Position numbers and translations under genes: made by a program. Of a stretch of DNA of 64,000 nucleotides, positions 3,001-64,000 are shown one piece after another. Positions within the stretch are counted from its first letter, which is position 1, and every line of letters begins with the position of its first letter. Where the stretch lies: contig QEYB01001296.1 in the NCBI GenBank assembly GCA_017562135.1, positions 310,001 through 374,000 on the forward strand, written 5' to 3'. This stretch comes from Dipylidium caninum (taxonomy: Eukaryota > Platyhelminthes > Cestoda > Cyclophyllidea > Dipylidiidae). Below the pieces are notes generated by a model. That model did no database searches and was not told where the DNA came from. It saw nothing but the letters and a program-made list of their open reading frames with translations.

Positions 3001-6000
3001 AGGTGGCATTCGGCATTGAAATCCGTATGTGGTCGTTGCATATGACTTTTTAAAATTGTAATCCACAACCTTCGCCTTTAAATGAAACTTGAACAAAATG
3101 TAACTTACCAGTCCATTGGGGGCCTTTGCGTATGTAAGAAGGTGGTCATGCCATTGTTTACGACAACTCTTTCGAACTCCCTCGGCAATATGCCTGCATC
3201 CTCAATGGCCAGTGAAGGGGTCTCTCAGTGGCCTTGAACAGTTAATACTCGCTCATCGGACGGGAGAAAAACCCGATTGGCTTGTGCACAAAAGCAACAG
3301 CAAACTATCAACGTGAGACGTCTCTGAGCACGCAATAATAGTAGTGGTGAGTCAACGGCGGCGTGGAAGTTGAAGTGTAAGGCTTGTCGAGACGAGTACC
3401 GGTGTGCGCAGATGCCAGGGGATCCTGCCTACAATGTCACCTGAAGTGTCTTCGAGCATTTCAGTATCGGAGGTGCGTACGCCACACATCGCTCCCGTCT
3501 CCCGTGTACACTTTCGAGTGGGGTGGAATTCCAACGCCTTGCTAAATTGATCCTAACAAGAGTTGCTTTAAGCGAATCGACATGTAGAATGCTGTAGTCT
3601 TGAACTAAGAGCTGCGGAGTCGCCTTACCTTCTAGGGTGATTACCATCGCAGTCGCTACGCCCCGTCGACGCTTCTCCGCCTGCCGGGTGACTGTGTGCG
3701 TAGGATGGCGGAGCAGCAGCGTAGCGCCCAATCGCTAAGATTCTGATTCTGGGGCTTAATTAACCCCGACTGGCATGGGACCAATTAATTTCTAGATGCG
3801 CCATCGAAAGGTGGCAACGCGAAGCTCGAGCATATTGTATTCACCGGAACAGTGGCCCCTCGCCTCCACACACTTTAGGTCAACATGTCTTTCGGCATAT
3901 AACTGAACAATGTGACTAGTGTGCGAAGGTGTAATTTGGCTGATAGCGACTCTGGTTGTATCAAACAAAGGCATTGGCGGCTGGCACGCCTCGGCCAACT
4001 TCAGTGTGATCCACCTCTCTCAAATGACATGGGCCTAAGCGACAAATCTCGTGTGTAATGGGAGACCACCTGAACATTGATTCGCCGACAAGCCGAGATC
4101 TCAACGCACCTTCTCCACTCTTTTACTTACGCTTCTAGCTTAAGCCGCTCTCTCGACGCTCATTGGCTCCTTGGCGGGATTGACTTGGAGATGGGCACGT
4201 TTATCTGCTCCTCACAGCCCCGAACTGACCCCGAGCGCTTCGCGAGCATCTTCATCCAGTGGGGCTAGTGGGACCAGGCACCAAGCGCAGGTCGCGAAAA
4301 TCCGCTTTGCCAATAGGAGCGACTCTTGCAGATTCGCGTTTTAGCCATTTGTTTGATAAAACAGTTTTAATCTTGCAAACATTGAAGTGAACTCCTTAGT
4401 GCTCTATTAAATCTGACACCAGGTGCAACTCAGGTGCACAGTGCCTCTCGATTGTCGGAGACAGGCAAAGGTACACATTGTGGTCACCATGAAACAATTC
4501 TACTGGAGGTACCTCGAAAAGACTAGCAACAGCATAAAGTCGGCAAAACTCGACGGCTGGCTTATACTCTTTCGCCTCTCACGAAACCTCGTTAGTGTCT
4601 CGGTACGCGGATCGCTGGAAGTGACTAGGTAGTGCCAATCGCTCATCCGCTGGTAGTTTTCTTTGCGGGAGAAACGCATGTGAGATGGAAACAATTACGT
4701 GTCTCCTCTCCTCTCGTTCAACTGCGCTCCAGCCTCGCCCCACAAACCTGCCCCCGCTTCCCTTTACTCTCTCCCCTCACCGACCCCCACCTTCATCCTC
4801 CCCTCCCCAGCCCCGGCCTATGCCTTGTGTGCGACACTTGCGGAGTGCGCTAGAGTTGCCTGAATGAAGCATGACACGAGAGTGAATTATTAGTACAAAG
4901 TGTGAAAGAGAGTCGCCCTTTGAGTAGCTTCTCCTCGCATAAAATGAGTTGAGTCAATTTTCTGCAGGTATGCTCCAACTGGCTCACAGCAGCGTTCACA
5001 GTAGATCGGTACTTGATGATATGCCATCCTTTCATCGCCAAGCGTTGGTGTACTCTGCGCCTGAGCAAGGTGGTGATAGTGGCGGTGTGGGTGGCCAGCT
5101 TCTGCTACACTCTCCCTCGCTTCTATGAGTATGTCTACTTCACACCGTTGCCCCATTCCATGGCGGAAGACTCGCGGTTGCTCCTACCCAGCCACTGGTA
5201 CCGGCTCTCGGCCTTGGGCGACTCCAACTCCTTCCGTTTCGGCTACCATCTGTGGGCGTGGTGCGTCCTTGTTATTGGCCTGCCCTCGCTCCTTATTGCC
5301 ATACTCAACATCTTTCTCGTGCGAGAGATCAACCGTTCAATTGAGCGCATGCGCTATGAACAGGGAGTCAAAATGAGGCGACACGAGACCGACATCATGC
5401 TGATCGGCGTCATCGTCATCTTTTTTGTCTGCCAGGTAAAACCACCCTGTCCTTCTCCTGCTCCTGCTCCTCCTTCTCTTCTTCCTGTCCGACTTGATTG
5501 GGCAATTTGTTTTGTCCAAGGACCGTATCTGGTTATCGGCAATGGGGACGTGAATATTTGCCTCACCCCATCTCCAGCTTCTCCGTTGCCTCAAGTAGTG
5601 CTAAAAAGCATTTCGAGTTCGCTCAATTATATAGGATGTAATTGTAATACGAAATTCTCAAAGTACACAGGGTTACATGGGAGGAAAGAAAAACACAGGA
5701 AATTTAAGTGTTGACATTCCCATCCCGCCATTACCGAACCCTTCAAACGGCTGTCGAAAAGCCTATTATTAGCTGACCCGCGAGATGATTCACTAAGTAT
5801 ACAACGTGAGACGCCACTCTACCAACAGTGGAATCTCCGTGCACGGGATTTCAACGGTTCCTACTCCACGTGCAGCTCTGAATGAGATTCGCGGAAAGTT
5901 GCGTGATGTTCCCCTTTCGCAAAGTGAGGGCATCGTAGGCGATTTTTCACGTGTCCGCGCAGACAACTTGAAGTGGGGGGTGAGCCGGACGGGCGTATTT

Positions 6001-13627: not shown

Positions 13628-15395
13628 TCAACGAGGGTCAACAACACGAGCGATGAAGAGAGGCATCTCCAAGGCCGAGTCGTAGATAGCGCAGTAGAAC
13701 GGTTGGTCAACGACGAACGGACTGGGCGGCGGTGGAAGGGACATTAACATGATGGAAATTGAACTGACAGCCGCTGCCTTGACGCCGGCCTCATTCACCT
13801 CTAGCATTGCCACTTGTTTGGCTTCATCGGCGTAGAGTCGTGGATCCGAGCTTATGCCTAGAAAAGAGTGGAAATGCCAACCGGTCGAACCCTGAGATTA
13901 TTGTGCCACGCGTAAGTGATTAGCACGGTTTTAGACCTTGAGAATGGCAGAATGGAGCAGAAATATGGCAGAAAAAATTCAGATCGTGCGAAGAATGAGA
14001 CTTTTCGGTGCAGCACAGACACTGCGAAACTCCTCACCTGTCAGGTTAGCAGCGCCTGGAGTGAAGAGGCGTCGTACCCCGAGAAGAGAAAGGACGCGTT
14101 TCAAGTCAATTTTGTGCTCAATTTTGAATTTAGGCAGAGCGAGTTGAACCTGCGTATAATTCTCGCTCTTGTGGAATATTTCCCATTTGAAGTCATCGCT
14201 CTTCAGGTCATTCTCGATGGCGTTCAAGTCGAATCGACTCTTGGGTAGGAAGATGAGGAAGAGGAACTGGTCATTCTAAAAAAGATCGCATATTTAAACA
14301 GGCACTTTGCCGCACCCATCGCTTTTGTGTAGCTCAAGTATGAAGTCTTCATACCTTGAAACGTTTAACCACCACCCTGTAGTCCTCTTTGTCTATATAA
14401 GCCATCCGCGTTTGTAAATGCATCATGGGCACTTTCACTGGCACATCTTTCTTCAAATAAAAGTCCGATTCTACCGTTTTATTCTCCGTAAATGCTTTCT
14501 CCCATTTTTCTACAACATGAGGAAGTCTTCCCAACACCTTAAGACACAAAACTCTTGGGCCAGCCCTTATTCTCACCTTTGAATGATATCGCATTTAATA
14601 GGACCATAATCGTCGCGGCACTCAGTTCGTCCTTCGATTTCAGAAACTTTTCGATCAGATCATTCGTGGACGAACGAGCCCATTGATTAATTCTGTTAAA
14701 CGCTTCCGACGTGTTGAAGAGGACCTTGACAGTTCTTAGTAGGAATGTATGAAAGCCTCACCTCCTCCACGTGGTCTCCCTTCAAAGAGGTAAATTTTTT
14801 AATGAATGCTGAAGAAATTCTCAGTCCTCTCTTCAGGAAGGCGGCATTGGAGAGCGATAGTATTTGTCTGCCGTCTCTGGCTCTAGAATTTTGGACAACT
14901 GTACGAATTTTGTTGAGCGTTTTCTCAATGTCCGTATAATCCAATCTCCTGCATGCTTCCTTCTTCTCCTCCCCAAGAATCGCTTCGCATATCTCCTTGG
15001 CGCTCTCGCCTGACGGGCCTTTGGAGACGAGGAGAGAGGACAGTAGCACTAGCACACTCAGGGGCGAGGCCACATAATTTTCCATGTTGCCTACAGACAG
15101 GAGGTGAAGGCTAAAGGCAGCTTAAACGTAGGTTTCATAGTAAAATATAGCATGTAGTAACGGCCTTGGGTTGCGCAAGGCAGCCGCTGTGAGGGCTGGG
15201 AGCGCAGACCTGAGGAGTTATTTTATTTGCCTCCCAATCTGCTAGGAGTACGCCCAGGGCAATAATGCGGGAGCCGGTCAGGCATCAATGTAAAAATTGA
15301 AGGAGAGACTTGCCATTAGCCTTTAACGAGGCTTCGAAAAATCCGGCATTGAAGTCTTTGTGCGTGACGATTTCGGTCGGCGCTCCCCTGCACAT
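13628..15395 (-). CDS. Serpin, intracellular type, probably inhibitory
   Basis: Six exons on the minus strand: 15395–15314, 15090–14762, 14724–14577, 14509–14355, 14275–14038 and 13857–13628. All phases agree and give 393 aa, the usual serpin length. The start MCRGAPTEIV leads straight into helix A with no signal peptide, so a cytosolic or leaderless protein is likely. Family signatures in order: NMENYVASPLSV, AFLKRGLRI, INQWARSSTNDLI, VLLNAISF...WEKAF, VPMMHLQ, LPKFKIE, LFTPGAANLTG, LEVNEAGVKAAA (hinge) and FVVDQPFYCAI. The Gly342/Val343/Ala345–347 hinge fits an inhibitor. Counting from Glu340 as P17 puts P1–P1' at Met356–Ser357, as in alpha-1-antitrypsin, which predicts elastase- or chymotrypsin-like targets (inference). 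Exon 1 ends at a GC donor (gcaagt); intron 2 is only 37 nt. If the GC donor is wrong, Met at 15085 is the alternative start, but helix A would be lost. Confidence 0.9.
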
Positions 15396-21064: not shown

Positions 21065-27944
<6,880 letters not shown>

Positions 27945-30725: not shown

Positions 30726-33120
30726 ATGATGTCTTTCGACATGGAACATCTTTTGCGGCTAATTGAAATGTTACCATCCGGAAGTTCCAATGAGGATACT
30801 ATACAGGAGTTGCGGAATAGTATTTCTAACTTCAATATCTCACCCGAGTCTCTTAATTCTCAAACAATATTTTTATCCAAGTTAGCTGCTAAACTGTTTT
30901 TGAATCTAAATTCTCCTTCATGTTACAACCTCCTACTGTTTGCTACGTCAAGTGCTAATGCAGACATTTGGTTTGGAGTTCTGGTCTCCCGAATACAACA
31001 GAACGATCAAAACGTTATGGATATTCATCCTTGTCTCAATCTGCTCTCAATGTACCTTCTCGAGTTTAGACGCCTCCCCCAACTTTTTTCTACGATAAGT
31101 AATACGGCTGATTGCTTACCGAGTTCCGCTCGTCATACATTCTTAATTGAAAGGACCCGTCGCCTTATTAATCTTCCCACAGTTATAGCCAATTCAATCA
31201 AGACTATTGCTTCTAGGCGTCTCTTCGAACCGAGTGTGTACTTCCCTTTCATTATAAAACATGCAGCTGAGGTTAATTATCCTCTTCTTAACGGCGTAAT
31301 TATTTCACAGTCATGCCTTCTGGGTTTTGGAAAAGAGGTTTGGACAGCAATTCTTCAACAACTTTCTCGTTCAATAGAAAGCTCAAAAGTTTGGGATACA
31401 GCAATTCCTCATATTCAGGAAAGGGCGTTAGAGGCAACTTTGGTCCCGCTTCTTACCCATGCGTCCCATCCTTACTTTGTGACTCGGTACCTCTCTTCTG
31501 CTATTCATTCTCCACTGCAGCATCAGATATTCCGCCTCTTTCATCGTCTTTTACTTTTCCGTAAATTCCCATCTCCTCGAGTTCCAATCAATATATTCGG
31601 CTTCTTGAAGGAGGCTTCCACGGATGACTTAGTTACAAAAGTTGAAAATGATCTTGGTTTACATCTCTTTCAGTGTTGGTCTGATTCTACGGCTCTTCGA
31701 AACAATTCGTCTCAGAACCGTATTTACCTAAATCAGGCGCTTGTTGCCTGGGTCAACATATTTCAAGATTTTATCAATAAGTCTCCTCTCTACTCCACAT
31801 TTGTTTCCCATGCCCTACAGGGTATATCAGTACATCTAGCTTGCAATTTTGAGGAGCAGAGAATTTTGGGTATGGCCGTTGGTGAGTGGTTAATGGGTCG
31901 GCTTCATATCGGTGAGAATGCTGTAAATGAAGAAGGAAAATTAAAAGTGCTAAAATTTGAATATGCGGAAAACGAAGCTGTTAGACTTGTGAAACCTCTT
32001 TTCAACCCCATCCCACCTTACCAGTTGTCCGAAAACGAACCAGACGAAGGTAAGCGATTTCTCATTTACGTAGTGTCTAGGACACACTTCAGTCTCAGAC
32101 ATTGAGGGACTTTTCGCCCATTCCCTGGATTCTAAGCCCAAAGCTTCGAATAACTTACCCATAAGTCTGGATAGTGATGATGATCCAGAAGAGGATGAAA
32201 TGAGTAGAGGTTTCAAATCGCTCCCTGCTTATGTAACTCCTGCTCCTTCCGACTGGCCTTTCCGCACTCGCCGTCCTCATTACTTGCGGGAGTGTCTCGA
32301 CGGCCTTGGAGGTGCTAAAAGCAATCCAGACGATTTGGCCAGCAATGAGATTTCATTGTCATGCTTTGCCCACGCAGAAGAACTTATTTATCGTCATCGC
32401 GGAAGGGCCGTGGATGAGGTCGCTATCGCCTTCGCGGATACCCTGCTCCACACCGAACCTCCCATCTCTCCTCACACTGAGAAAGTGGATACTTCTCGAC
32501 ATCGTGCCCTCGTCGCCTTAGCGGTGGTTTCCCCTAAACGGACGGTCCGGTACCTCACCGGCCAGCTGACTCAGCCCGGTCTCGCGATCAACCAGCTCCA
32601 CATAGTCATTGCGGCACTTACCGAAGCTGTATGCTGCCTCGGTTCCAAGTTCACCCCCTTAGTCGGCGATTTTTTCTTTCCCATGCTTCGAGCAGCTGGT
32701 ACTTTACTCAAGCGCGAATCCAGTGTCTACACACATCTTGATGATGCTGTGTTGGCTAGAATTATGGCTTCTCTTGGAACCATGTATGCCCTGGCGTGCC
32801 ACTCACCAATGATTTTTCGAATGGCAGAGGAATTTTTGGCTCTGAGCTCTGCCATTCTGACAACCGCGTGCGATCCTGTGGTTCGCAGATCATTCCTCGC
32901 CGCTCTGAATGTTGTTCTTACAGCCACGCCCTCTGTCCTGTTAACTTCTAACTACCAACTTCTGGTTAATCCTACTTTAATAGATGGGCTTATCAAAACA
33001 TTGAACGACGATCCCAATTTGGATTGCCAGTATATGGCAGAAGTTGCTATATCCTTCCTGCGTAATCATTTTACGAATTTAACCGCTGCCGATCTAAATA
33101 GACTTATAATAAAAGAGTGA
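30726..33120 (+). CDS. TELO2: TEL2/TELO2-like protein of the TTT complex
   Basis: Two exons, 30726–32049 and 32099–33120, separated by a 49-nt GT–AG intron in phase 1, giving 781 aa (human TELO2 is 837). The protein is almost entirely helical in character, with HEAT-like leucine patterns. An acidic stretch follows the splice (SLDSDDDPEEDEM), then PHYLRECLDGLGG; the Tel2 C-terminal domain in other animals begins with the same acidic-to-YLRDCLE pattern. In known systems TELO2 works with TTI1 and TTI2 and Hsp90 to stabilise PIKK kinases (ATM, ATR, DNA-PKcs, mTOR). Downstream, TRIP13 starts 336 bases after the stop on the same strand. The second Met (MMSFDMEHLL) could also start. The call rests on the C-terminal motif and overall layout, so another HEAT-type protein remains a small possibility. 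Confidence 0.8.
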
Positions 33121-33456: not shown

Positions 33457-36329
33457 ATGGAGTTTGACGAACCGATTGAGGTAACACCAGGTGCTGAGGT
33501 AACAGGAGATAACGGAATGGCCGACAAATCGCGTACTTCGCTTCACCAGCCCATCATTCATGTGGAGATTCGTCTCACACGTGGTAGCATTGCTTCCCGC
33601 GATTCCGTGTGTCAAGCGGTTCAGACCTACTTACGCGCCAAACAGGGCGCTTGCAATCTTCCCTCTCTTTGGGAACCCGTTACCGACAAAGATTCATCTT
33701 ATGACCAGACTTTTTTCACCGAAAACATTGCCTCTGTCTTTGTACGTCTTCACAAAGCCCCTGATGGTTTAGCATCCTAGCGCATTTCAAGTTGATTTGA
33801 GATCTTAGCTTTTCTTTTTAATTTTGGTATTTTTATTGAATCTTTAATGCGAGCCGTATTTGTAGTTAGGTGTCCAAAGTTCTTACATTTTTCGAAACGG
33901 AATAGTTTTGGTAGATTTTTTAGATCGAGGTTGGCCTCAATTCATGTCGAAAGTTGTTCTAAGTTGTGAAATTTCGTTGTAGTGTTAAACATATGAAAAC
34001 TTATCAGTTTTTTAATCTACCTATTACTTAAATCTCGAGGGCCCTAGGTAAGTGTATGGCGTCTATTGCATTTGAGATTTGTATATTGTATAGTTGAGTA
34101 CGGAAGATACGGACTGCCCAATTAGCAAAGACTCGGCTACTCATTCGGCCGTACATTTAGAGACAGCTCTGCTGGTGTATCATGTTTACCGCCTTGTCTC
34201 GGGTGACGAAGCCATTCCCACTCATGAGACTCTCGAAGTTTCTTCCGAGATTATCAGGGGCGGCACCCGATGGGCCCTACCCTCTTCTGCCTTTGAGGGA
34301 CTTTGGGATTCCCTCATTTACGATTCCACGGTCAAAAGAGATCTCCTCAAGTACTCGGAAACTTCTCTCCTCTTTGCTGACTATGAGGTACTCTCCCCAT
34401 TTCTCCTTCTAAGTGACCCAAGCGTTTGTGTGAAAGTGTTGCTCCGGCAATGTGTTCTGTACATCGTTAATAGTTCTGAAAGTTATTAGATAAGTCTGGT
34501 GTTTATTTGAATGTGTCAAGCCCACGCCAATTTTTTGAACCTAATTAGTCCCGCTCGTTAAGCAGGTGTTATTCAAATTTTGTGAGTCTCCTATTTTTTA
34601 ACCAAGGTATATTCCTCATCGCTAGATTGTCCCGTCGAATGTTCTTTCTGTCTCTTCAAGGTGAGTCAGCGTGTGATTGCGTGGAATCGTGTCATTTTTC
34701 TGTATGGCCCCCCGGGAACAGGCAAAACATCCCTTTGCCATGCCCTCGCCCATAAACTATCTATCAGACTCTCCCATCGTTTCACCTCGACGGCGTTGAT
34801 CGAAATAAATACGGTCAATTTGATGTCCAAGTGGTTTTCTGAGTCAGCTCGTCTCGTTTCGCGGATGTTTTCGTCGATTTTTGAGTACCTTGAAGACCCC
34901 GACCACCTTGTTTGTCTGCTTATTGACGAGGTTGAGAGTTTAACTACCGTCAGAAAGTCCGTTGCTTCTGCCTGCGAGCCCACCGATGCGCTTCGTGTTG
35001 TCAACGCTGTTCTGACTCACCTGGACCAGGTGCGGTAATCTTACAATCTTTTCTACTTACGGCGTTTCAGCCATAATAGTGTCGTCAATTTATCCTTAGC
35101 TCAAACATTATCCCAACGTCCTCGTGATGGCAACTTCCAATGTAACCGGTATGGTTGACTCCGCATTTCTTGATAGAGCGGACATTCGTGCTTACATTGG
35201 ACCTCCATCAGCTGTGGCAATCTACTCCATTTACACCTCCTGCTTGAACGAGCTCATCCGGGTCGGTCTCATAGAACGCCAAAAGTCCGGTCTCCTAAAC
35301 TACCGCGTCTTGTCAGCATTACAATTCACTGAAAGTTCAGTAAGCTTCTTCTCTTGTAGTAGTTTGAAACTTCAAAAGCCACTCAGGCAATTTGTTACAT
35401 TGACTAACCAGATTGCAGTATTGCGAGTGCGAACTTCATGTTGCCTGCAGTACCGTTGATTTTTTGAAATGAGCTTTTTATTGACTAATGTCCTAATGAG
35501 TCTCTTTGGATATATGTTTTGTTTTTGCAAAGTGATATTTGTTTCGACTATTTTCGCTTCTTCCATGCACAGCACCAGCGACTATTTGGCAAATACAATA
35601 CTTTCAGAGAGCTAGCAGAAGCCTCTTTCTCCCTGCATTTCTGTATTGAATACCACCAACAGGCTTTGCCTTTGTTCTACTTCGTATCGCGTTAGTTACT
35701 TGCTTTGCACATTTCATATGTGCAAGACAGGTTCTTTCAAACAATACATTGAAAACGCGTTAGGGCTTGAGTATGACTTAACTGAACTCTTTTACATGTG
35801 TACTTTATGATTTCTTTCCTCAATTTGGGCAACGTCTTCATTCGTCGAAGCAATGGTTGTCCTAACATTCCGGTAAATACAGTATCTGCATCTCTATCGA
35901 TGGTTCTTATAAATGAAGGTGACTGCTCCCAGCCTGGCAGTGTGGCGTTTGGCACAGCGCAGCGTCGGTCTCAATGGGCGGACACTGCGGAAGTTGCCTC
36001 TCTTGGCGCACGCCTTCCATGTGGACTCCAAGTACCGCTCTTTTCGTGGCACTCTTCCATTCGCCCGATGTGCGGTCAATGGTAGTGAAAATGAGTCCTT
36101 TACCTCAATACAATCCTCGTCATCTGGCACAGAAAGGGACCCCTTGAATGCCGTCCCCCTTTCGGTTTTCGTTGAAGCACTCCAACGAGCTGTAGACTGC
36201 CGATTTTTTGACCAACAACTTTGCGCCAAATCTACGGATGAACCGAACTCGGACGCGACACTGAAAGGGACTAGTTGTAGTACCAAAGTCGCTATCAACA
36301 CCTCCAACTCAGTTTTCACTGGCCTTTGA
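33457..36329 (+). CDS. TRIP13: TRIP13/PCH2 AAA+ ATPase
   Basis: Five phase-0 exons: 33457–33741, 34094–34387, 34661–35029, 35100–35339 and 35919–36329, giving 532 aa. The N-terminal domain has WALPSSAFEGLWDSLIYD, close to the TRIP13 motif WVLPAAEFHGLWDSLVYD. The AAA+ core shows Walker A GPPGTGKTS (residues 209–217), pore-loop SKWFSESARLV, Walker B LLIDEVESL (Asp282/Glu283), ALRVVNAVLTHLDQ, sensor-1 TSNVT, FLDRADIRAYIGPPSA and sensor-2 GLNGRTLRKLPLLAHAF. By family it remodels HORMA proteins (MAD2, HORMADs) in the spindle checkpoint and meiosis. It is about 100 residues longer than human TRIP13 (432): a Ser-rich insertion sits between LAHAF and the last helix (VFVEALQRAVDCRF), and a low-complexity tail follows. 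ATTAAA at 36374–36379 may be its poly(A) signal. Confidence 0.95.
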
Positions 36330-52900: not shown

Positions 52901-55269
52901 GCTGCTATGCCAAAAAACACCACAGTGTCACATTTTTTCAATGCATGGAACTCCGGGGCTAAAAGATTTCTCTGAGTCAAAAGTCTTTTTTAGTCGCACT
53001 CCCTAGAACAGCTGGCTACCACGAGCCCTAACGCCTCGACTTGTGGTTTTCTGCCCTGTTGTTGGTGTCAACCTCCAAATGATAGTGTGACAGAATGGAT
53101 TAATGAAAGTAGAGAGGTGAACCCGACCATACGAGGTTAAGGTGCGGCCTGCTTTAGGGTCGACCGACAAATCACCACAAATAGCAGGACACGAAGTAGG
53201 GCGGTTGTGCTAACATCATCCTCTATAAACAGAATTTTAATCGTCGGTGGCCTTAAGTGCAAGACAAGTGATGGATGACTTCTTTTTATAGTCGGTCTAT
53301 CAAGAGGCCTCGTCTTCGGGGTTAGTCATACGTCAGCCAACATGACAAGTCACAAATTTCGAAAGAAAGTGGTTCTATACCTTTCTCACATTAGGTTAAG
53401 ACCTGGTATCGTCCTCGCCTAGTTAGAATGCAGGTTAGAACTGGTAGCTACCACGACCAAAACACAAATGAGCACGTGGCCTGGCTTTGGGCGTTCCACC
53501 TCCACACATGTCACTCCTGGCCGCCTCCGTGTATTCTCTGAGGCGCTCAACGCGGAGCCCCTGATCAGGCCCGTTCGTGAGCCACTGGGTGGATGCGGGG
53601 AGGAATAAGTGGGTACCCTGAGGAGGTGTTTCTTTCCTGAAAAAGATAAGCGATTGCAGAGGCCGGAAGTAGGGTTGTTAGCAACATAGCAGCTGTCGAC
53701 GCAAATTCGCCTATTATTTACTGCCTTCGGCTCAGCCGCCCGACTTAGTAGTCTGTTGGTGCCAACAAAGGGGAAATTATACAATTTCCTCTTCATTCGC
53801 AACGGACAATCATGATAGTGAATTTTAAGAGATTAACATTAAATAGTGTAAGGGCATGAAGCAGTTGCATCCCTCAAATCTCCAGTGCATATAATGGATT
53901 ACTGAATTCCTGAAATTTTTCGCGAGTCTATGGGACTTTTCTCCTTATTTATGTGTTCCGAAAAATTTTGCGTCGCTCATAGGGAACGAATTAGCATTTA
54001 ATATGGCTGGATCGTAGTATTTTCGGTTATCTGTATTTTAGTCGTATAAAATAAACTGTTAAAGTAAATTTCTCTCACTTAATTTTATTATTTCCTAAAG
54101 AAGGAAAGATACCACTTTGAAGGTTGTGATGCTCGCATTACAGTAAATAATAAGAGTTGAGCCTTTTAAGTGAGCCTTATCAAGATCGCATCGTCTTGCC
54201 TACCTAACGCGATCACCGACAAGGCTTCACCCGCTCGATGAGACTCTCCTTCCGCTGTTCACATGAAGCCGGCTGTCATCTATTTTGGCCTCTCAAGAAA
54301 ACCCTAGGGAATCATTAACAAGGTCAAACGAATTCTGCCTTTACCACATGACCACAACTTTCGCACAATTCAGGGGACTTAGAATGAGGGAGAACGGGGA
54401 TAAAAGGGGAATGCTTTTGATATTCAACCCTAACGCCCACAGTAGCCGAGCTGCACTGCATGAATGCGGTTCACATGATTCCGAAGCTGCAGACGTGAGG
54501 GCGTAATTTAGCTACCGCAAAAAAACCACTTGTACGGAATATCGAGATTGTTGCTCTACGGTGAAAGTGGGTGCTCCTCTGGCAAAATCACTGGGTCCAA
54601 CGTGTGCTGAGAACCCTCCGCGCTGCATCACTGCTCGCGAATGGGCGGAGGACTGCCGAGTGGGGGGTGCGCTGATGGCCAAGGCACTACCACTTGGTAG
54701 GTATTATAGCTTAAACACTCGCTCGCGCTTTCTCATTAAGCACCTTCCTTTCAGTCTGTTTTCTGTTACCTCCTGCAGCCACAATGGCGTAGGCTTGAGG
54801 GGGAGGGGGAGACGGGGATGAGGGGCGCGACGTGCAGCAGACTCCCGTTTATTCGTCCAGTATTTCCTTGATTTCTTCTCACTACTTTTTCCATCAAGTG
54901 AGGCATCGTCATAGAGACTCACATGAGTTAGGGAGAGCACTCGCTCGCCCTACATCTCTGATGGTTATATTGCCTTCCGACGCTCCCCACATTGTCACTC
55001 AAAGCTGCAATATGCCGTTTTAGCGTCTCTTTGCCCACTGATCTAATGGCCCTCCCCATACCCATGATTTCGTCCACATACTCAGAGAGGTCTAAACGCG
55101 TCCGTACCGGGGAGGGGAAAGGGCTCAGGGTGACACCCCACTCCTCGCGCAGTCCCCATGTGTCGCGTTCCAAAAGTTCCGCGTATGAGCTCGTCTTCGA
55201 ATTAATCTGGTGGCTGCCTCCGAGTTACCGTTGGTTAGTCAGTGGAGGAGGTGCGAAGGACTTGATTGG

Positions 55270-55275
55270 TTTATT
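55270..55275 (-). terminator. Polyadenylation signal of the SMB receptor gene
   Basis: AATAAA on the minus strand, 151 bases after the stop codon of the receptor whose last exon ends at 55426. Confidence 0.65.
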
Positions 55276-55425
55276 TTAAAGGGCCTCGAAACTGCTCTCT
55301 GATCGTAAGGACAAACACTTGACAAGCAGGAATGGGACCATTTTGCACAACATCTAAAAACGTCGATTTAATACAAATGGCGCAAGGCGCAAATGGGTTC
55401 TCAAACAAACGTTAAGTTGTGTACG

Positions 55426-58400
55426 CTAACACCTTGAATTCCCATCACCTTGTGGGACAGGCCTATTTCTTTTGGGGAGCAAGACTGAAGTCCACGTCTT
55501 GGAAGTTACCCAGCTTGACCTATCCTTGTCGCGTGAAGTGGACTGTTGCGTGCTGGAAACAGGAACTACGAATTTCCTACAGCACTCAGGCAGAAGATTG
55601 GCTAGCGCGCGTCTCGCCTTGACGCTGACAAGCATGGAGAGCGCGATCACCCCGCCTTGAGCACTATTAATCAAGCCCAGCAGCCTTCGCATCACGAGGA
55701 GTTGGGACCACCATCCTGCAAAGAGCTGCACAAACCAACTGGCGCCGAGGATAATGGCCAATTTGGCACAGACTCCTGCTAGATTCTTCGACTTCTCGCG
55801 GCGTTTCCGTTCGTGTTCATTCTGCGATGGGGAGCTCGTTTGAGCCTCCTTCGCGAGACGACAGATTTCAACGCAGACGAAGAGGAGGGCCAGGGAGTTG
55901 AAGGTGATCATACTTCCTGCGGGTATAAGGAACCAAATGACCAGTCCGCCAAGGTTTGTGAACCAGGCTCGAGATCTTTCTGGACAAAAGCCTGGGTAAA
56001 GGACAACCAAAGACTTTCCGAGGACTTCCACTTGGGTAATATTGAGGGTGGTCACCTCAGCTCCCGTCCCGGCCTCTTCCGGGAAGGAGGTGAGGAAACG
56101 AAAAGCACTTTCGTTTATCGCAACGGCAGGTATAACGGAGCAGAAGGGAAGAATGATCGCTATTGATAGATACTTCCGGAACCGCTTTTTCGGGCTGCTG
56201 TGGCGATATCCACGAATATGTGATGACCTTGACTGTAAATATGAAAATAAAAAGGGTAACACATAGCTAGAAGTTAAGTAAACCTTAATTCCGAGGGGGG
56301 GGGAGAGGGGGCGTCTACTCACCCCCTGATGTCGTGCTCTGTGCATTCAGTGATGCGGAAACAATGTGACATTGCGAAGACTAAACTCCCTTATGTGAAC
56401 GCTAACAACTCCATCTCCCCATCCCCAGTCTCACGTTTCAAGGGGCGCAGTGGAATTTACTAGGGAGAAAACGCGGCTTATTTTCGCATCGGCAGATGTG
56501 GAGACGAGAGCCGACTAAACTGGAAAATGTTGAGCATCGGGGTGGATTCGGCTAAGAGGACGACGGTGGACGGCGTGAGCAGAAGGGAAGGCGAGAGGGA
56601 GGCTTGACGAGGCGACAAGTGGACGTTATTTTGGGGAGCCATGGCGCGAATGACAGCAGAGCATCGAACCCTTTCCTGCCTGCCACGGCAGAACTGCGGC
56701 ACAATGAATTGGGAAGAAACTCAGGATCATTCTCTAGACTCGTCTATTATACCATCCCGGTATCAAGTAATTCCCTTGAAAGTTGGCAAAGGCCTCACCA
56801 AAACACCCTCAATGTTAGCTGTTTACGTGGATAAAACTGAGTGGGAAAAGAAAGAAAAGGACCGAGGCCCTGATTGCCCAACGAGATAAGACGAAGCAAT
56901 GACCGTCATAGTTAGGGTTTAGGGGAAACGAGAAGTGCTCTTCTGGTGCTACAACTCTTTAGAGAAGCATTTCTAACATCTTGGCTGCTTCCAGAGGTGA
57001 GCTCAAAGTGGACACGCGATGGAGCATCGGTCATCAGAGCGGTCTCTTCGTGTCCGGTTCTACTTACCACTAGTCCTCGAGATGCGGTGCTCTACTGGTC
57101 GGCTGCCGTTCTGTCTTTCTGTCTAGGTCCTACTACTCTGAAATTAAGGGGAAGTGAGTTTCTCGACCTTGGAAACAGTCTCGTCAGAAGTCGACGACAC
57201 TAACAGACAGAGGGGAAGACTTTCTCGCTATCGCCAGCAAAGACATCTCTTGCAGTTGTCATCCAATCACAATCAGTCCCCCACCTGATTGCGAGAGCAA
57301 GGCGGACTTGCGATGGTACCGCCTCAAATATTCTACACTGATCCCCTTGAAGAGGCTCTTATATAAGCTCGTTTAACTCGCTTTAGGTTACAACATTTCA
57401 AGTGGAAAGGGGTTATGAGCCTGGCCTCGCCTCTCATGCCATCTTTACGGTTGCACTTACTTCAACACAGTTCAAGTGACTCCAGCCGGTCCACTGTGTA
57501 ACTTGTGCTTGCGTATTTATAAACAAACCAGGGTATTTATTGTCTGCAAAAAATGCGACGTAATGTTTAGTTTAGCATTCGATAAGGAGAAAAGGCGAAG
57601 AATATAGTTCACATGAAGCAACCGCAAAGGTCCTTGGGTCGAAGCCCTACCATGACCCTAAGAGGAGGGTGCTTGTCCTGTCAGCGAGGCGAAATACTAA
57701 GGAGCCTCTCGGCGAGAGGAAATCACAACGTCCACCTTACCGCTGTGCCTTATAAAGACAGGGCAACCGAGGGAGGAGTCTGCGTCATTTGAGCCCGACT
57801 TGCAACGCGGATGCCAAGTGGAGGCTATGAGTTTTGGTTTTTCCTAACAGGCTCCGCTTAAATTTACTCTGAGTTGGGTGGAATTTGGACGCGTGATGCA
57901 CAACTGCAGTCGCCCGCAGTGGTTTTCACCAATGACCTACCTCATAAGCGGATTTCATGACCGCTTTCCCTTCCCTACTTATGGCGACCGTTAGAGTAAT
58001 GGTGCCCTCTCTTCGTCTACCTTTGCACAAAAGGGAAAAGGCGCAGTAAGGACGTCGGCTAAAACTAGGCCTAGGCTAAAGTATGGTTGTGAGTTCGATA
58101 ACCGCAGTTTCAGAAGTGAGTCCAAGTGCACCAGAATGCCATTTGGAGGCCTAGTTTAAAGGGCGGGACTGCCTCGAGAGACATCGGGTTCTTGTCACGA
58201 TAACGCCAACTTACCGTGGCTTTGTCCCATTGGCAAGTTAGGGCATTCCAACAGATGATTACGCAGTTTTTGCAGTTGCCGAAGGTGGCGAGGAGTTGAA
58301 CTGCAAAAAGTGTCATCCAGGCGAAACTGCAGAGAAGGGAGTAAAGGAGCAAAGCCGCCATGGTGACACAAAACTCGCGATTCCCAACCTGAGGTACAAC

Positions 58401-59366
58401 GAATGCAATCAGTAAAAAGGTCATTTCCATCGTCAAAAGCGCCATCCCAAGTCCCATTGTTAGCATTCCCGCGAGGGATCGCCGCAAACTGGCATTCACA
58501 CTGTAGACGACGAGGACAGTGATCACTCCAATGATGGAGAAGAGGAGCAATGCTATCTGGAGCCAAATGTAGGCTTCATTTGCCTCATTGCTTTCCTTGT
58601 CCGGGTTGGTCGAAACACTGAAGTTCAGTGTCGTATTCGAGTCAACTTGGTAAAAATCGAGGGGAAGGGTAATGTATGGATTGTTGAGATATTCATCGGG
58701 TATGACGAAGAGGTCGTCCATGCTAAAGAAATGCATATCTACACTGAGCCGTCTGAAACCCAGAGGTGTGCACGGACGAGTAAAGCCCTTCGGCAGTTTT
58801 ACGCTCACAAGGCATTCCGTTTCATTATTTTCTTCCTTACAACCTAAGTAAACTGGCGAGAAATGTACCTGGTCCCGAAGCAGGCCGTTGCATTTGGCGC
58901 AGTACATATTGGCGTACAGTCGTCTGTCGAGGAAACTCACAACAGGAACGACTGAAGGCAAGTGGGTTCGAAGCCATTGTAGCACATCATCCTCCCTGTC
59001 GACTATCGACATCAGGTTGGCTTCTTCGCAGCCTGACTTAATTTCTTCGCTGATTGCCTTGTCTGGGCACTGAGCGATTGCGCTGACATACTTGCCTCCT
59101 GGCATTATCGTGTCCTCCAGAAATATATTTTCGACACTCATACATCCTGATGACAGTGCGACCTCCTCATGAGGCAATGCAGGCGGTGTGCCCTTCACGG
59201 CAGTGCAGCAGTCGTTCAAGGCATGACATATGTCGTCGCAGAAACAGCCCTCGGCGTTCATACATCCGCCTAGGAGGGCGCTCCGGAAGTCCTCCCCGCA
59301 CGCCTGGAAGGTGAGGAGAAGGGCGAAGGCTAGGCCGAGCACAGGCACCATTCCTGCTGGCCGCAT
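55426..59366 (-). CDS. Class-B-like 7TM receptor with somatomedin-B-like N-terminus
   Basis: Two exons, 59366–58215 and 56232–55426, with a 1982-nt phase-0 intron (gtaagt…tttacag), give 652 aa. A signal peptide (about 1–24) is followed by six cysteines at 35, 41, 43, 47, 53 and 54 in the SMB core pattern CFCDDICHALNDCC. Next comes an ectodomain with AIAQCP, YANMYCAKCNG (151–161) and TECLVSVKLPKGFTRPC, plus N-glycosylation sites. TM1 is at about 267–290, TM2 297–322, TM3 332–360, TM4 404–423, TM5 478–506, TM6 535–558 and TM7 566–588. Cys332 (start of TM3) and Cys466 (loop 2) can form the usual disulfide. TM6 GASWFVQLFAG and TM7 AQGGVIALSMLV fit adhesion/Methuselah-like class B receptors. The loop between TM5 and TM6 is basic. 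No GAIN/GPS cleavage motif is visible. Ligand unknown. It is head to head with a paralogue at 61340. Confidence 0.88.
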
Positions 59367-61339
59367 CTTGCGCTAATGACCACGGGTAGCGGTGTCGCCT
59401 TGGCGCAAACACATCACTCCGTGGCGCGAGCCGATTGGCCAACTCGAGAGGGCAATCATTTGTTCGTTTTCAGCAAACGCCCCCGGCGTATCAAACTCTG
59501 TACTGTCAGACTGTATCAGAGGGGTCATTGCGATTTCTCAACGCTGCCTGTTATTAACTGGGACTCCACCCGATTTGGACAAATCCAACTTCGCAGGCGC
59601 CTTCGTACACTGCATTTTTGACTGGGAGGGGATTCGCAAGGCATAAAGGCCGTCATCTGCATTAAGGGCATTGATACATGACTGGGTAAACGTGTCCCAG
59701 GGAATAGAAGTTGCCGGAAGGGAAATTTATCCAAGTGAAATGTCCTCATTTGAACCCCTGATTATAACAGAATAAAGCAGGAGCCTTCTGTCCAGAAAAT
59801 CCTGTGGGCCTGTGCAAAAGCGCTCCTATCGACGGCTTTAGTACCAACATTGGGAGTTGTACTGCGGATCATATGCAGCGGGTGTTGGGATTAATTGCAT
59901 TAAATAATGTGTCTTAAGGGCTCATTGAGTGGGGAACCGTATGATAAACGACAGATGAACTTTATGGCAACGGCGACTCCGACTGTGGCCCTGTCCAAGA
60001 CCCCCAGGGGTTCTCATTTTCTTTTACCTACGGTTTAGATCTCAACCTCGTAGACTCTTCTTCCTGATTCCTGTAAGCTTTGTGGGTACTTTGCGAGGAT
60101 CTGGTCAAATTTTGATGAATGAGAACTTCTAAATAGACTAGGATGTCCCGTGTGGCACGAGGTGAGTTGACTGTTTTGACTGGACAGCCTTGTGACCATT
60201 CGCCGCTTCCCCTCACCGTTACACGGCAGCATCCTTCTTTAGCACATGCACGTTGCACATTCCTTTTGGAAGCTTGCCCTTGTGTGGGCGTGTTGGATTT
60301 CAAGCGGGTTGGTTATCTGCAACTAAAGCTCCTTAAGCATGTGTTTTGATGAATTTCACAAATACTAAGTGAATGTTACCCAGGCAGATTGCAAAGAGGA
60401 AGTGCTTCAAGTTCATGCCGTTTGAATTATATTGACAGAAGATGTTTCTTTGGCTGCCATCGCACTTCCTTTTCGCTTTAGATTATGAGTGAAACGCCCT
60501 TGCAAACCAAAGCTGTTTCATCCTTCATTTACTTCGCTCTGACTAGTACATTTAAATTGCTTCGGAGAGCGTGTATTTGCCCTCCGGTGCGTGGTTTCAT
60601 GAGCGTCAAGTGGACTGGAGCAGGCGAGTCAATAACGGATGCTGTCTAGTAAATGTGTGGTGGTCCTGGTATTTTATGCCCACGAGACTGCAATAATTGG
60701 GCCCGTGTCAGGCGAAGAAAGACCCCGTGGATGAAAGTAATAGCGCCAAATGCGGTTTGGGGTCAACCCCACATTTGAATAAGTTAGGGCCTTTTTCATC
60801 ATTAAATTAGTTAAACCTTCACTTTATGGGGTGCGACGAGTTAATGCATATCTTTGATTGTTAGGGGTCTAATTAACATCTCTGAATCCAAGTCCTCCAT
60901 CTCCAGCAACGGTGGCAGCACCTGCTATGCAGGATTAGCTTATTCGGCTACACGAATCTAGTTTGTCGAGGGAGAAACACCCTTATGCCAACGCTGAACT
61001 CAACTTATAACAGAACGCCTAAAAGCCATGCGTTGGTTGTTTCTACATTTTGTCATAACGACCCTGGTGGCCCTCGATTGTGCTTTCGCACAGGTAGCGC
61101 GGCTGTCCGATTGCCCGCAGTGGGATTAGGAAGCCCACCGCATATTATCGACGGCCTGGCTGATATAGCCTCCCACGACCTCGAGGAACGCTGGCTTAGC
61201 CGTCCAATTCGTCAATTTCACGTCCACCAATGAGAATCAGCGCATATTCTCATTGGTGAGAACCGCACAACACCATACACCATACACCAAGCATACGCAA
61301 GCCTGCTGTGCATAAAACGAAATACCCTGGCATTCAAGC
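59367..61339. promoter_or_regulatory. Shared upstream region of two divergent receptor genes
   Basis: 1973 bases separate the start codons of two paralogous receptors on opposite strands. No third gene is supported inside. The side next to the + strand gene carries a 13-base perfect inverted repeat with CCAAT in each arm, followed by two ACCATAC units. Both promoters, and possibly shared control elements, must lie here. Confidence 0.6.
61225..61258. promoter_or_regulatory. Perfect inverted repeat with opposed CCAAT boxes
   Basis: Arms caccaatgagaat (61225–61237) and attctcattggtg (61246–61258) are exact reverse complements with an 8-base spacer, 81 bases before the receptor ATG. Each arm holds CCAAT, the core of NF-Y type sites. 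Could act as a paired promoter element or form a hairpin. Confidence 0.6.
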
Positions 61340-62416
61340 ATGCTAATGGTCGTGACTCATATTGTGCTGCTTCTGGTGCAGCAGGTATGCGGCCAGACAT
61401 CGGCATCCGGTGGATCAGACGGGAGCCTTGAGATTGGTGCCTTTGGCAATTCCAGCGATGACGGGGTCTTGGCAGCAGAAGCCCGTCGGTTGGTGACTCC
61501 GATGCAGCAATGTATCGGCGTCATGCGCGGTATACTCATAACGGCCGGAATCCACTTGGAGCCACGTGTCATGGCTATCGCTCAGTGTCCGCAAAGTGCT
61601 CCGTCCGACCTGGCTACCCTCTGCTCCACCGAGGTTCATGTTTTTCCCCCAGGAATGGGTTCTGTTAGTGAACTGCAGAATCAGCTCCTCTCCAAAATTA
61701 ACGTCGGAGGCAGACGAGCCCTTGGACAGCATCTAAATCTAGCTATCCGAAAGGTTTCCCCACTTGCCGATCCTGAATCGGGTGACATCTATGCAAACAT
61801 TTACTGCGCACAGTGTCACAATATCTTTCCTAATAAGCGCATAAGCCACCTTCCAAAAAAACTCCTCTGTGACCGTATAAATGGTGTTACTAAGTGCTTT
61901 GTCGGAGCTAAAATGCCAAAAAATGTGAGGTTCTGTGAAGAGAAAACAGCTAGTCCACGATTCACCTTTACTTGGGATTCCATATTCGAACTCCCGGAGG
62001 AGGATGAGGAGTACGAGGAAAAAACCCTCACAGAATCAGTTTTTGAGATCGCCCAATGGTGCTGCTGTGCCTTCTCAATGGTGGCATTAACCTTGGCCAT
62101 TTGTGTCTTCTCCACCTCGGCTCGATTGAGAACACCACTACCCGGAAAAACGATGATTGCCCTCTGTTCCACTCTGCTCGGTGCCTTGTCCACCTTTCTC
62201 CTCGGCAGTGGCGTCATGGACAGCCTAACTGAGCCCCTTCGACCGATGTGCGTCATCTTCGCCTGGCTCCTTCAAATGCTTCTTCTCTCTGCTTTTGTTT
62301 GGATGGCCATTTTTGCCGTAGAATTGTTTCGCACTTTTGGTCTCACTCGTATTTTCCAACGTTTCTTGTTGTGCCTTTTTTGCAGGAAGGCGAAAAACAG
62401 TAGGACGAACGCAACG
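61340..62416 (+). CDS. Class-B-like 7TM receptor, paralogue lacking the SMB module; 3' part outside window
   Basis: The first exon runs from Met (signal peptide VTHIVLLLVQQVCG) to a gtaata donor at 62417, 359 residues, phase 0. The ectodomain shares AIAQCP (79–84), YANIYCAQC (151–159) and KCFVGAKMPKNVRFC with the receptor on the other strand, and the motif starts at the same residue number in both. The six-cysteine SMB module is absent; a Ser/Gly-rich stretch takes its place. TM1 is at about 235–257, TM2 268–290 and TM3 304–331, with Cys304 at the start of TM3. The exon ends right after TM3 at ...NAT, the same place and phase where the paralogue splices (…KAT). TM4–7 should be in a second exon; the paralogue's intron is 1982 nt, so here it would fall beyond position 64000. 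A stop nine bases into the intron ends the unspliced frame. Confidence 0.85.
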
Positions 62417-64000
62417 GTAATATTGTGATTTCTATGCGATGACAAGTAATATCTCTCGAGCTCGTAGTAATAACCATGTTTATGCAATCCACGAACCCAT
62501 TGCAGGAGGCAGTGAAATAGACTGGGATCGCGTCCGTACACTTGTTGGCTAGAGTTGCCTGTGGTAGTAATGTGGATGGTCACCTCTTGGGAAGGACAGC
62601 TAACTAATCACATGCCGTTCGTTCCTGGCAATCGTCCTGTTAATGTATGGCTGTGCACTCCCCCATATCCGCCTCTCACACGTAACTTGCTGATGCATCT
62701 CGCATCATGAAAGAGATAATCTTTCCCGTCGATCAGCCTTTTTCACTTTCTTATTTCGGTCACGTCCACTTCCGTACTTAACATTCTGACCAAATAGCTT
62801 CCGGTACTTGTCCCCACAGAGGCCAACGAGGCAGGAGGTAGCGAGGCTGTACTAAACTGCAAACTTGTCACTAAGATGAGGTTGCGCTGCCATGCCTGTC
62901 CGCCCCCAACGCTGACCACTTCAACCATCTATTTTTACCTCTTGCAGCTCTCTGTTTATTAGTGTCTTGCCGCTTCCTCATAGTTTTGTATGACTTAATG
63001 GGAAATTTCAGTTGAACCATCATTGCATAAAGCCATCAACCGACAAGGAAAAATAGTAGCCAACAATTGTGGAATAAAATCCTACTTATCTCATAGTCAG
63101 GAGCCCCCTTCCGCACCGTACGCCCAGGGGTGCTCTGAATCTCCGGTTTCTTTAGCCTATAAGGCGGCTTGCGGAGATTCGACTGTCAAAATTGCGTGGC
63201 GAGACAACTAGAAGGCTGTTGTACGGTCTCCCCTTTTCGGCATTTATGCTCCACAAAAGGTGTGAATTTTAAGCTAACCTATTAGAGAACGCCGTTTGAC
63301 CAGCGATGCACGGCCGAGACACCACCCAGACGTAAAGCAGCCCGGTGTGGTTGTTCATTCGCTTTTCGGTCGCTTTTTTCGGGAATTTTTTAATCTGTTC
63401 CTAACCACACAAATGTGCCCGCAGTTCATAGAAGAACTTAAAATTCATTTCTTGGCCGATGGTCGGGAAATTATAACATTGCCTGGAAATCTGAGCCACC
63501 TTGTTAGTTTAAGAACTGCGCCCCGACGGATTCTATGCCTTTTCGGTAATGTTAGCCTTTAGTGGATCAAGCAGTCGGAATTTAAAAACTTCATTCATTT
63601 AGGTAAATCACTACTCGATTTAGGTGGAAAGGTTTTGGTTGGGAAACATTCACTTTCCCATCGTTATACGCCTGGCCTTCGCATCAGATGATCATTTGCT
63701 CTCACTCAACAAGAGCTTTTCATGTTTCACCGCACAGTTTGGGAAAGGAAAACTTTACAGGGGAGCACACATTATCTCAGTTGAGATCCGATAACCCTGA
63801 AAAGTGGAGTGTGAACTATGACAGAGAAATTAAGTGTGCCCAGTGGGGATCATTCTGAAGCGTTTGTTATATCTTGTGGGATCTCACTAAACCATGTATG
63901 TTTACTCTCTTTAGTCCATGATGCTTCAGGCGCGCGGATCGGACCCGAATCCCACCCACCGATTTAAGTGCCAGATGAGTGTAGCTAGTCTATTTCCGCT
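62417..64000 (+). other. Probable intron of the truncated receptor gene
   Basis: I found no sequence resembling the paralogue's TM4–7 exon here. An open frame at 63296–63562 has no receptor features. The segment is best read as intron continuing past the window end. Confidence 0.5.

What the first reader, a model, noticed from the sequence alone, without database searches (positions are those of the whole stretch)
55426..62416. Head-to-head pair of paralogous 7TM receptors sharing a YANxYCAxC ectodomain
Seen: two receptors on opposite strands, 1973 bases apart, share AIAQCP, YAN(M/I)YCA(K/Q)C at the same residue number, a C...K-x-PK-x3/4-C block, and an intron in the same phase right after TM3. 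One has a somatomedin-B-like module, the other has lost it (or never had it). Inference: a local inverted duplication of a lineage-specific receptor family with a possible bidirectional promoter, and divergence in ligand binding through the SMB module.
Basis: partly seen in the sequence, partly recalled or inferred. Interest (0 to 1): 0.75.

Follow-up and report, generated by a model that had tools for sequence, protein, structure and literature searches.

The report
Paired tapeworm receptors with built-in agonist
Two related cell-surface receptor genes sit back to back in a genome that is most likely a tapeworm's; they belong to a receptor family that a coral also has, one of them has likely lost an adhesion-type module, their signalling halves were likely made alike again after the sensing halves had diverged, and each is predicted, at low confidence, to switch itself on with a short stretch of its own chain.

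Summary
M (minus strand, 652 aa) and P (plus strand, 621 aa) are head to head, 1,973 bases between start codons, each with one phase-0 GT-AG intron after TM3. P's missing second exon starts inside the window (63915-64703). In their own genome each finds only the other. Tapeworm orthologues of both types exist, so the pair is old. The ectodomain is not flatworm-specific: its Pfam domain is on 59 of 63 relatives from outside the tapeworm set, among them a coral protein with an SMB domain, so P has most likely lost SMB. New here: (1) M and P share 32% in TM1-3 but 49% in TM4-7, although orthologue and outgroup pairs show no such gap; a Spirometra gene is P-like in TM1-3 but slightly nearer to M in TM4-7; the break lies around the intron. 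Ancient gene conversion of exon 2 explains this best; uneven selection is a serious rival. (2) A pre-TM1 motif, [WMF][DE][DSN][ILV][FLI], is in 25 of 25 tapeworm proteins and 0 of 63 relatives; AlphaFold models of two orthologues place it where adhesion GPCRs hold their tethered agonist, in matching register, though no GPS/GAIN is detected. That part is low-confidence. A shared promoter is untested.

The parts
58215..59366 (-). M gene exon 1: signal-peptide-like start, SMB-like module, YANxYCAxC ectodomain, pre-TM1 motif, TM1-TM3
   Evidence: model; orthologues P0001-P0008
56233..58214 (-). M intron, phase 0, GT-AG, 1982 b
55426..56232 (-). M gene exon 2: TM4-TM7 and C-tail, stop
59205..59264 (-). 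SMB-like cysteine core CMNAEGCFCDDICHALNDCC (residues 35-54)
   Evidence: pattern; Pfam PF01033 E 0.13, below cut-off
59064..59081 (-). M AIAQCP block (residues 96-101)
58890..58916 (-). M YANMYCAKC block (residues 151-159)
58701..58727 (-). M pre-TM1 motif FSMDDLFVI (residues 214-222), predicted tethered-agonist-like segment
   Evidence: motif; position in models of orthologues; known stalk
61340..62416 (+). P gene exon 1: signal-peptide-like start, YANxYCAxC ectodomain without SMB, pre-TM1 motif, TM1-TM3
   Evidence: orthologues P0009-P0023
61574..61591 (+). P AIAQCP block (residues 79-84)
61790..61816 (+). P YANIYCAQC block (residues 151-159)
61967..61993 (+). P pre-TM1 motif FTWDSIFEL (residues 210-218), predicted tethered-agonist-like segment
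62417..63914 (+). P intron, phase 0, GT-AG, 1498 b
63915..64000 (+). P gene exon 2 (TM4-TM7, C-tail): the part inside the window; it runs on to 64703 in locus L004
59367..61339 (.). 1,973-base stretch between the two start codons; shared regulation possible but untested

Best explanation
The locus holds two paralogous seven-helix receptors back to back, sharing the ectodomain of a receptor family that includes a coral protein, and they likely arose by an old inverted duplication after which P likely lost its SMB module, gene conversion likely re-homogenised exon 2 (TM4-TM7), and each receptor is predicted to be switched on by its own pre-TM1 segment. How it would work: a ligand or matrix partner binds the diverged ectodomain (SMB-like plus YCAxC module in M, YCAxC module alone in P); this would free or reposition the motif [WMF]-[DE]-x-[ILV]-[FLI], which is predicted to lie in the helix-bundle pocket like the stalk of adhesion GPCRs but without GPS cleavage; the similar TM4-TM7 halves would then couple both receptors to the same or similar G proteins. 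Shown: gene models, paralogy, family motif, SMB-like pattern, the crossing identity pattern, motif conservation. Inferred: inverted duplication as the origin, SMB loss, gene conversion. Predicted at low confidence: tethered agonism. Untested: ligand, G protein, expression.
Against: Motif pLDDT is low (ten-residue blocks 53 in the M model and 48 in the P model); VIA gives only end points of alignments; both models used the same 33 sequences in different order. The models are of orthologues, not of the window's own proteins. The motif pattern was drawn from the tapeworm sequences themselves. Rooted exon-2 trees reject none of P+Spirometra (in the best tree), M+Spirometra (p-AU 0.433), M+P (0.276), so who converted whom, and when, is open. 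The C-tail, on the same exon, is as diverged as exon 1 (M-P 23%), so a converted tract would have to stop near TM7. The best split in the second scan is residue 399, not the junction itself (65.8 against 61.8). P alone and P+Spirometra also show a raised two-tree gain (30.0 and 34.9; 100 shuffles each, maxima 31.4 and 32.7), so part of the signal is ordinary difference between the halves. TM1-3 is only 110 columns. Only one Diphyllobothriidean protein was found. Orientation in other species was not seen.
Confidence: 0.55

Rival explanations
1. No conversion: one old duplication, with TM1-3 diverging unusually far between M and P (new ligands) while TM4-7 was held by a shared G protein. The exon break is then a functional border, not a recombination border.
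For: The C-tail on exon 2 is not homogenised; the unrooted exon-2 tree has M on one side, P on the other and Spirometra between (100/99 on both branches), which a single history also allows; P alone shows some difference between the halves.
Against: M, P and Spirometra are equally far from outgroups in TM1-3 (24, 26, 25%), and TM4-7 is not the more conserved half in outgroup pairs (45/39) or orthologues; a Spirometra gene that is P-like in TM1-3 is nearer to M than to P in TM4-7.
Confidence: 0.35
2. The chimera arose by recombination in the phase-0 intron: a copy of one gene's exon 2 was joined downstream of an already diverged exon 1, rather than by gene conversion of an existing exon 2.
For: Same phase-0 intron place in both; the raised stretch of the split scan contains the junction.
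Against: No repeat of 30 bases or more between the two introns in 54000-64000, though the event is too old for that to tell; the C-tail should then be alike too, and it is not.
Confidence: 0.15
3. The pre-TM1 motif is only a linker or a dimer contact; AlphaFold put it into an empty pocket because it is hydrophobic.
For: Low pLDDT; the pattern is in none of the 63 relatives, whose pre-TM1 region differs.
Against: Kept in M and P although the ectodomains share 22%; spacing and structural register match the known stalk.
Confidence: 0.55
4. The two receptors are not close paralogues but separately acquired members of the family that happen to be neighbours.
For: M-P identity in exon 1 is only 16-34% by segment.
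Against: Same intron, 50% identity in exon 2, sole mutual hits in the genome, the motif seen only in tapeworms in both, tapeworm proteins together against seven outgroup proteins (99/98 in TM1-3, 100/100 in exon 2).
Confidence: 0.04

Closest known systems
SMB-bearing adhesion-like receptors: NvX (Nematostella) and PARF1 (planarian)
   Same: Class B-like 7TM with an SMB domain (PMC3261222, passages read: PARF1 receptors have one SMB, one member two; two S. mansoni receptors also have an SMB)
   Different: P has no SMB; M's is below Pfam's cut-off; pre-TM1 motif not seen in relatives. No named NvX or PARF1 sequence was compared here
The PF28443-bearing receptors (61 of 63 unnamed, one coral, one skate without PF28443)
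   Same: SMB core (29 of 63), YxNxYCAxC (58 of 63), 7TM
   Different: Longer ectodomain; each of the five relatives counted has two YxNxYCAxC modules where M and P have one; motif absent in 63 of 63
Mth/Mthl receptors, with SMB members in Nematostella, lancelet and acorn worm
   Same: Class B-like 7TM; SMB in some members (PMC4768249, parts 1-2 of 3 read)
   Different: No Methuselah_N domain listed for M or P; that paper reports no Mth/Mthl in Platyhelminthes; no Mth/Mthl sequence was compared here
Adhesion GPCRs ADGRD1, ADGRF1, ADGRG2
   Same: Nearest solved 7TM by sequence (ADGRG2, E 3.2e-6 and 4.4e-7); among the nearest by fold; stalk-like hydrophobic spacing
   Different: No GPS or GAIN model listed for M or P; ectodomain of about 260 (M) and 230 (P) residues

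Membership tests
Adhesion GPCR (class B2) | Class B seven-helix domain | tested here: met
Adhesion GPCR (class B2) | GPS motif / GAIN domain | tested here: not met
   No GPS or GAIN family among matches with E up to 10 for M and P exon 1 or for P0004, P0009, P0013, P0020; HMMER's filters drop most weak matches
Adhesion GPCR (class B2) | Tethered agonist in the 7TM pocket | tested here: inconclusive
   Motif placed there in both orthologue models but at low pLDDT
PF28443 / YCAxC receptor family (as delimited here) | YxNxYCAxC ectodomain | tested here: met
   25 of 25 tapeworm proteins, 58 of 63 relatives by a slightly wider pattern; PF28443 precomputed on 8 of 8 M-type, 4 of 15 P-type, 59 of 63 relatives; the model itself was not at hand
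NvX / PARF1 | SMB domain, M receptor | tested here: inconclusive
   Cysteine core present in 9 of 9 M-type; Pfam E 0.13, below cut-off
NvX / PARF1 | SMB domain, P receptor | tested here: not met
   Core absent in 16 of 16 P-type proteins, of which P0010 and P0012 start late
NvX / PARF1 | Groups with named NvX or PARF1 sequences | not tested
   No protein named so was returned
Methuselah / Mthl | Methuselah_N ectodomain (PF06652) | tested here: not met
   Not among matches with E up to 10
Methuselah / Mthl | 7TM falls in the Mth/Mthl clade | not tested
   No Mth/Mthl sequences were in the trees

The most novel reading that the evidence does not exclude
A GPS-less, GAIN-less receptor family in tapeworms carries its own encrypted agonist next to TM1, with the stalk's S3-S6-S7 spacing rebuilt in a new sequence, and the back-to-back pair has traded its signalling exon by gene conversion while keeping private sensing exons: two sensors, one engine, activated without proteolysis.
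Probability: 0.25. Interest if true: 0.75.

Novelty: new variant of a known kind. Interest (0 to 1): 0.5.

Why it matters
If the motif is an agonist, tethered agonism does not need the GAIN/GPS machinery, and a short synthetic peptide would be a ready tool for orphan tapeworm receptors. If exon 2 was converted, the locus is a natural experiment in keeping two receptors on one signalling half while the sensing halves diverge, testable in published tapeworm genomes.

Tried and rejected
Lineage-specific family: rejected, a coral relative with the same Pfam ectodomain. P second exon wholly outside the window: rejected. Recent species-by-species conversion: no sign; in exon 2 M and P stay apart across species. 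Clade tests: discarded, I had left Pwin out of the P group; redone. Stem lengths as printed by the tree drawing are half-branches at the root; distances are quoted. Rooting the exon-2 history: not resolved. Shared promoter: CpG at 58000-62499 and repeats at 58800-61900 (five short inverted pairs, two of them joining the two coding regions, one over the AIAQCP codons) decided nothing. Ectodomain fold: M residues 1-261 matched no solved chain by sequence at E up to 10; the ectodomain was not folded alone, so nothing is said about its fold. RNA families and tRNAs in the window: none. Papers: SMB + GPCR + Echinococcus 0 hits, Stachel + Methuselah + GPCR 0 hits; the listings show no title or abstract start that names this pair; the library lacks most subscription journals. 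PMC13197933 (first 300,000 of 412,533 characters) holds none of six terms such as GAIN-less or flatworm. PMC6114109 (passages) says that 4 adhesion receptors have been described in E. multilocularis, and databases already name single members (P0012 GPCR family 2, P0010 Adhesion G-protein coupled receptor G4), so the genes as such are not new. Rows dropped: P0003 and P0015 (gene models lacking or garbling part of the 7TM) from all trees and identity tables; six exon-1-only proteins (P0006-P0008, P0021-P0023) from exon-2 trees and identity tables; 7 of the 63 relatives used as outgroup. The profile search returned none of its own tapeworm rows, so its silence on other flatworms means nothing.
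Full report
Where it lies. The window is G000:C452:310001-374000 of an unnamed 106.3 Mb genome in 920 contigs. Best local identities of the orthologues are 63-67% for the well-covered Taenia and Echinococcus proteins and 49-55% for Hymenolepis, Rodentolepis, Mesocestoides and Anoplocephala, and P groups with the taeniid proteins (95/91), so the genome is most likely of a cyclophyllidean tapeworm; the species was not identified.

Gene models. M, minus strand: exon 1 59366-58215 and exon 2 56232-55426, 652 aa. P, plus strand: exon 1 61340-62416 and exon 2 63915-64703, 621 aa. Introns of 1,982 and 1,498 bases are GT-AG, phase 0, at the same place after TM3. P's second exon was found with M as query (E 9.9e-55, 50% identity); 86 bases of it are inside the window. 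In the own genome M and P find only each other, apart from one row at E 0.035 with three stops inside; searches there score only the best candidates, so distant members could be missed.

What they are. Pfam gives 7tm_2 above cut-off for M and for P exon 1. Nearest solved sequences are adhesion GPCRs, ADGRG2 first. No GPS, GAIN or Methuselah_N model is listed. M's N-terminal cysteine segment is SMB-like: CxC[DE]xxCx(4-6)CC is in 9 of 9 M-type proteins, 0 of 16 P-type proteins and 29 of 63 relatives. Pfam scores it below cut-off in M (E 0.13); of the ten proteins only the coral one is above cut-off.

The family is wider than flatworms. A profile of six proteins (five tapeworm, one other) returned 63 proteins; 59 carry the precomputed Pfam domain PF28443, whose name I could not see, as do 8 of 8 M-type and 4 of 15 P-type proteins. 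YxNx[YFA]C[AVI]xC is in 58 of 63, and [YF]xNx[YF]CAxC in 25 of 25 tapeworm proteins; five unnamed relatives counted (P0024, P0077, P0079, P0080, P0081) have two copies each, the coral and the skate none of the strict pattern. Only two of the 63 are named: a coral (P0083, with a Pfam SMB and PF28443, and YKNHHCAQCHG at the motif) and a skate adhesion receptor that has PF01825 (GPS, name recalled) but not PF28443 (P0086). Since SMB occurs with this ectodomain outside tapeworms, its absence from P is most simply a loss. PARF1 (planarian) and NvX receptors are described with an SMB in PMC3261222 (passages), and SMB-bearing Mth/Mthl members in PMC4768249 (parts 1-2 of 3), which found no Mth/Mthl in Platyhelminthes; I had no named sequence of these for a direct test.

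Age of the pair. M-type proteins came from Taenia, Echinococcus, Hydatigera and Hymenolepis, P-type ones from these plus Mesocestoides, Anoplocephala, Rodentolepis and Spirometra. Orientation elsewhere was not seen.

Two halves, two histories. Mean identities in TM1-3 / TM4-7 (24 proteins): M-M 72/73, P-P 70/68, outgroup pairs 45/39, M-outgroup 24/20, P-outgroup 26/20, M-P 32/49. In all 55 M-P pairs TM4-7 is higher, by 9.5 to 22.6 points; no M-M, P-P or outgroup pair exceeds 7.6. Spirometra P0020 is 63/48 to P and 34/53 to M. Bootstrapping columns, Spirometra is nearer to P by 28.9 points in TM1-3 (20.0 to 37.6) but nearer to M by 4.8 in TM4-7 (interval of P minus M -10.4 to 0.6, so not excluded to be zero). 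Mean tree distances in TM1-3 / exon 2 are M-P 5.68/1.77, M-Spirometra 5.87/1.39, P-Spirometra 0.92/1.53, M-M 0.48/0.41, P-P 0.57/0.61 (trees); the long ones are near saturation. A scan for the best split of the TM region peaks at residue 379 of 21 places tried; with a simpler model it is a broad high stretch, 56.5 to 65.8 at all places tried from 369 to 402, highest at 399, and 61.8 at the junction 384/385, against 20.9 +- 5.6, maximum 42.9, in 200 shuffles; without Spirometra 52.2 against a maximum of 36.2 in 100. Against: P alone gains 30.0 (100 shuffles, maximum 31.4) and P with Spirometra 34.9 (maximum 32.7), M alone 4.2 (mean 4.4); the C-tail is not alike (23%); rooted exon-2 trees decide nothing. 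I read this as ancient homogenisation of exon 2, most simply gene conversion between the inverted copies; direction and date are open, and uneven selection remains a serious rival.

Verdict. A real, well-bounded gene pair; old members of a wider receptor family rather than a flatworm invention; with two features that I did not find in the papers searched, a homogenised signalling exon and a stalk-like motif without GAIN. The first is well supported as a pattern, the second a testable guess.

Noticed in passing
4953-5711 (+): Open frame with a rhodopsin-type 7tm_1 match (E 2.7e-15), so the window holds a third GPCR of another class.
   Followed up: no
about 21900-27202 (+): Collagen gene: at 26012-27202 triple-helix repeats and a fibrillar collagen C-terminal domain, with 18-base periodic repeats upstream.
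   Followed up: no
32074-33117 (+): Telomere length regulation protein domain (Telomere_reg-2, E 1.7e-13).
   Followed up: no
14699-15121 (-): Serpin match (E 4.8e-8).
   Followed up: no
34586-35035 (+): AAA ATPase domain (E 1.4e-16).
   Followed up: no
L002 448-2043: A second class B frame of the same genome, with a cysteine- and tryptophan-containing stretch that looks like a GPS (recalled motif) followed by GSFAIAMM before the helices; a natural comparator for the stalk-like motif.
   Followed up: partly
L016 1180-1635: The only SMB match found in the own genome with the Pfam model (E 9.9e-7; M's own module is too weak to be listed).
   Followed up: no
   Followed up: no
   Followed up: no
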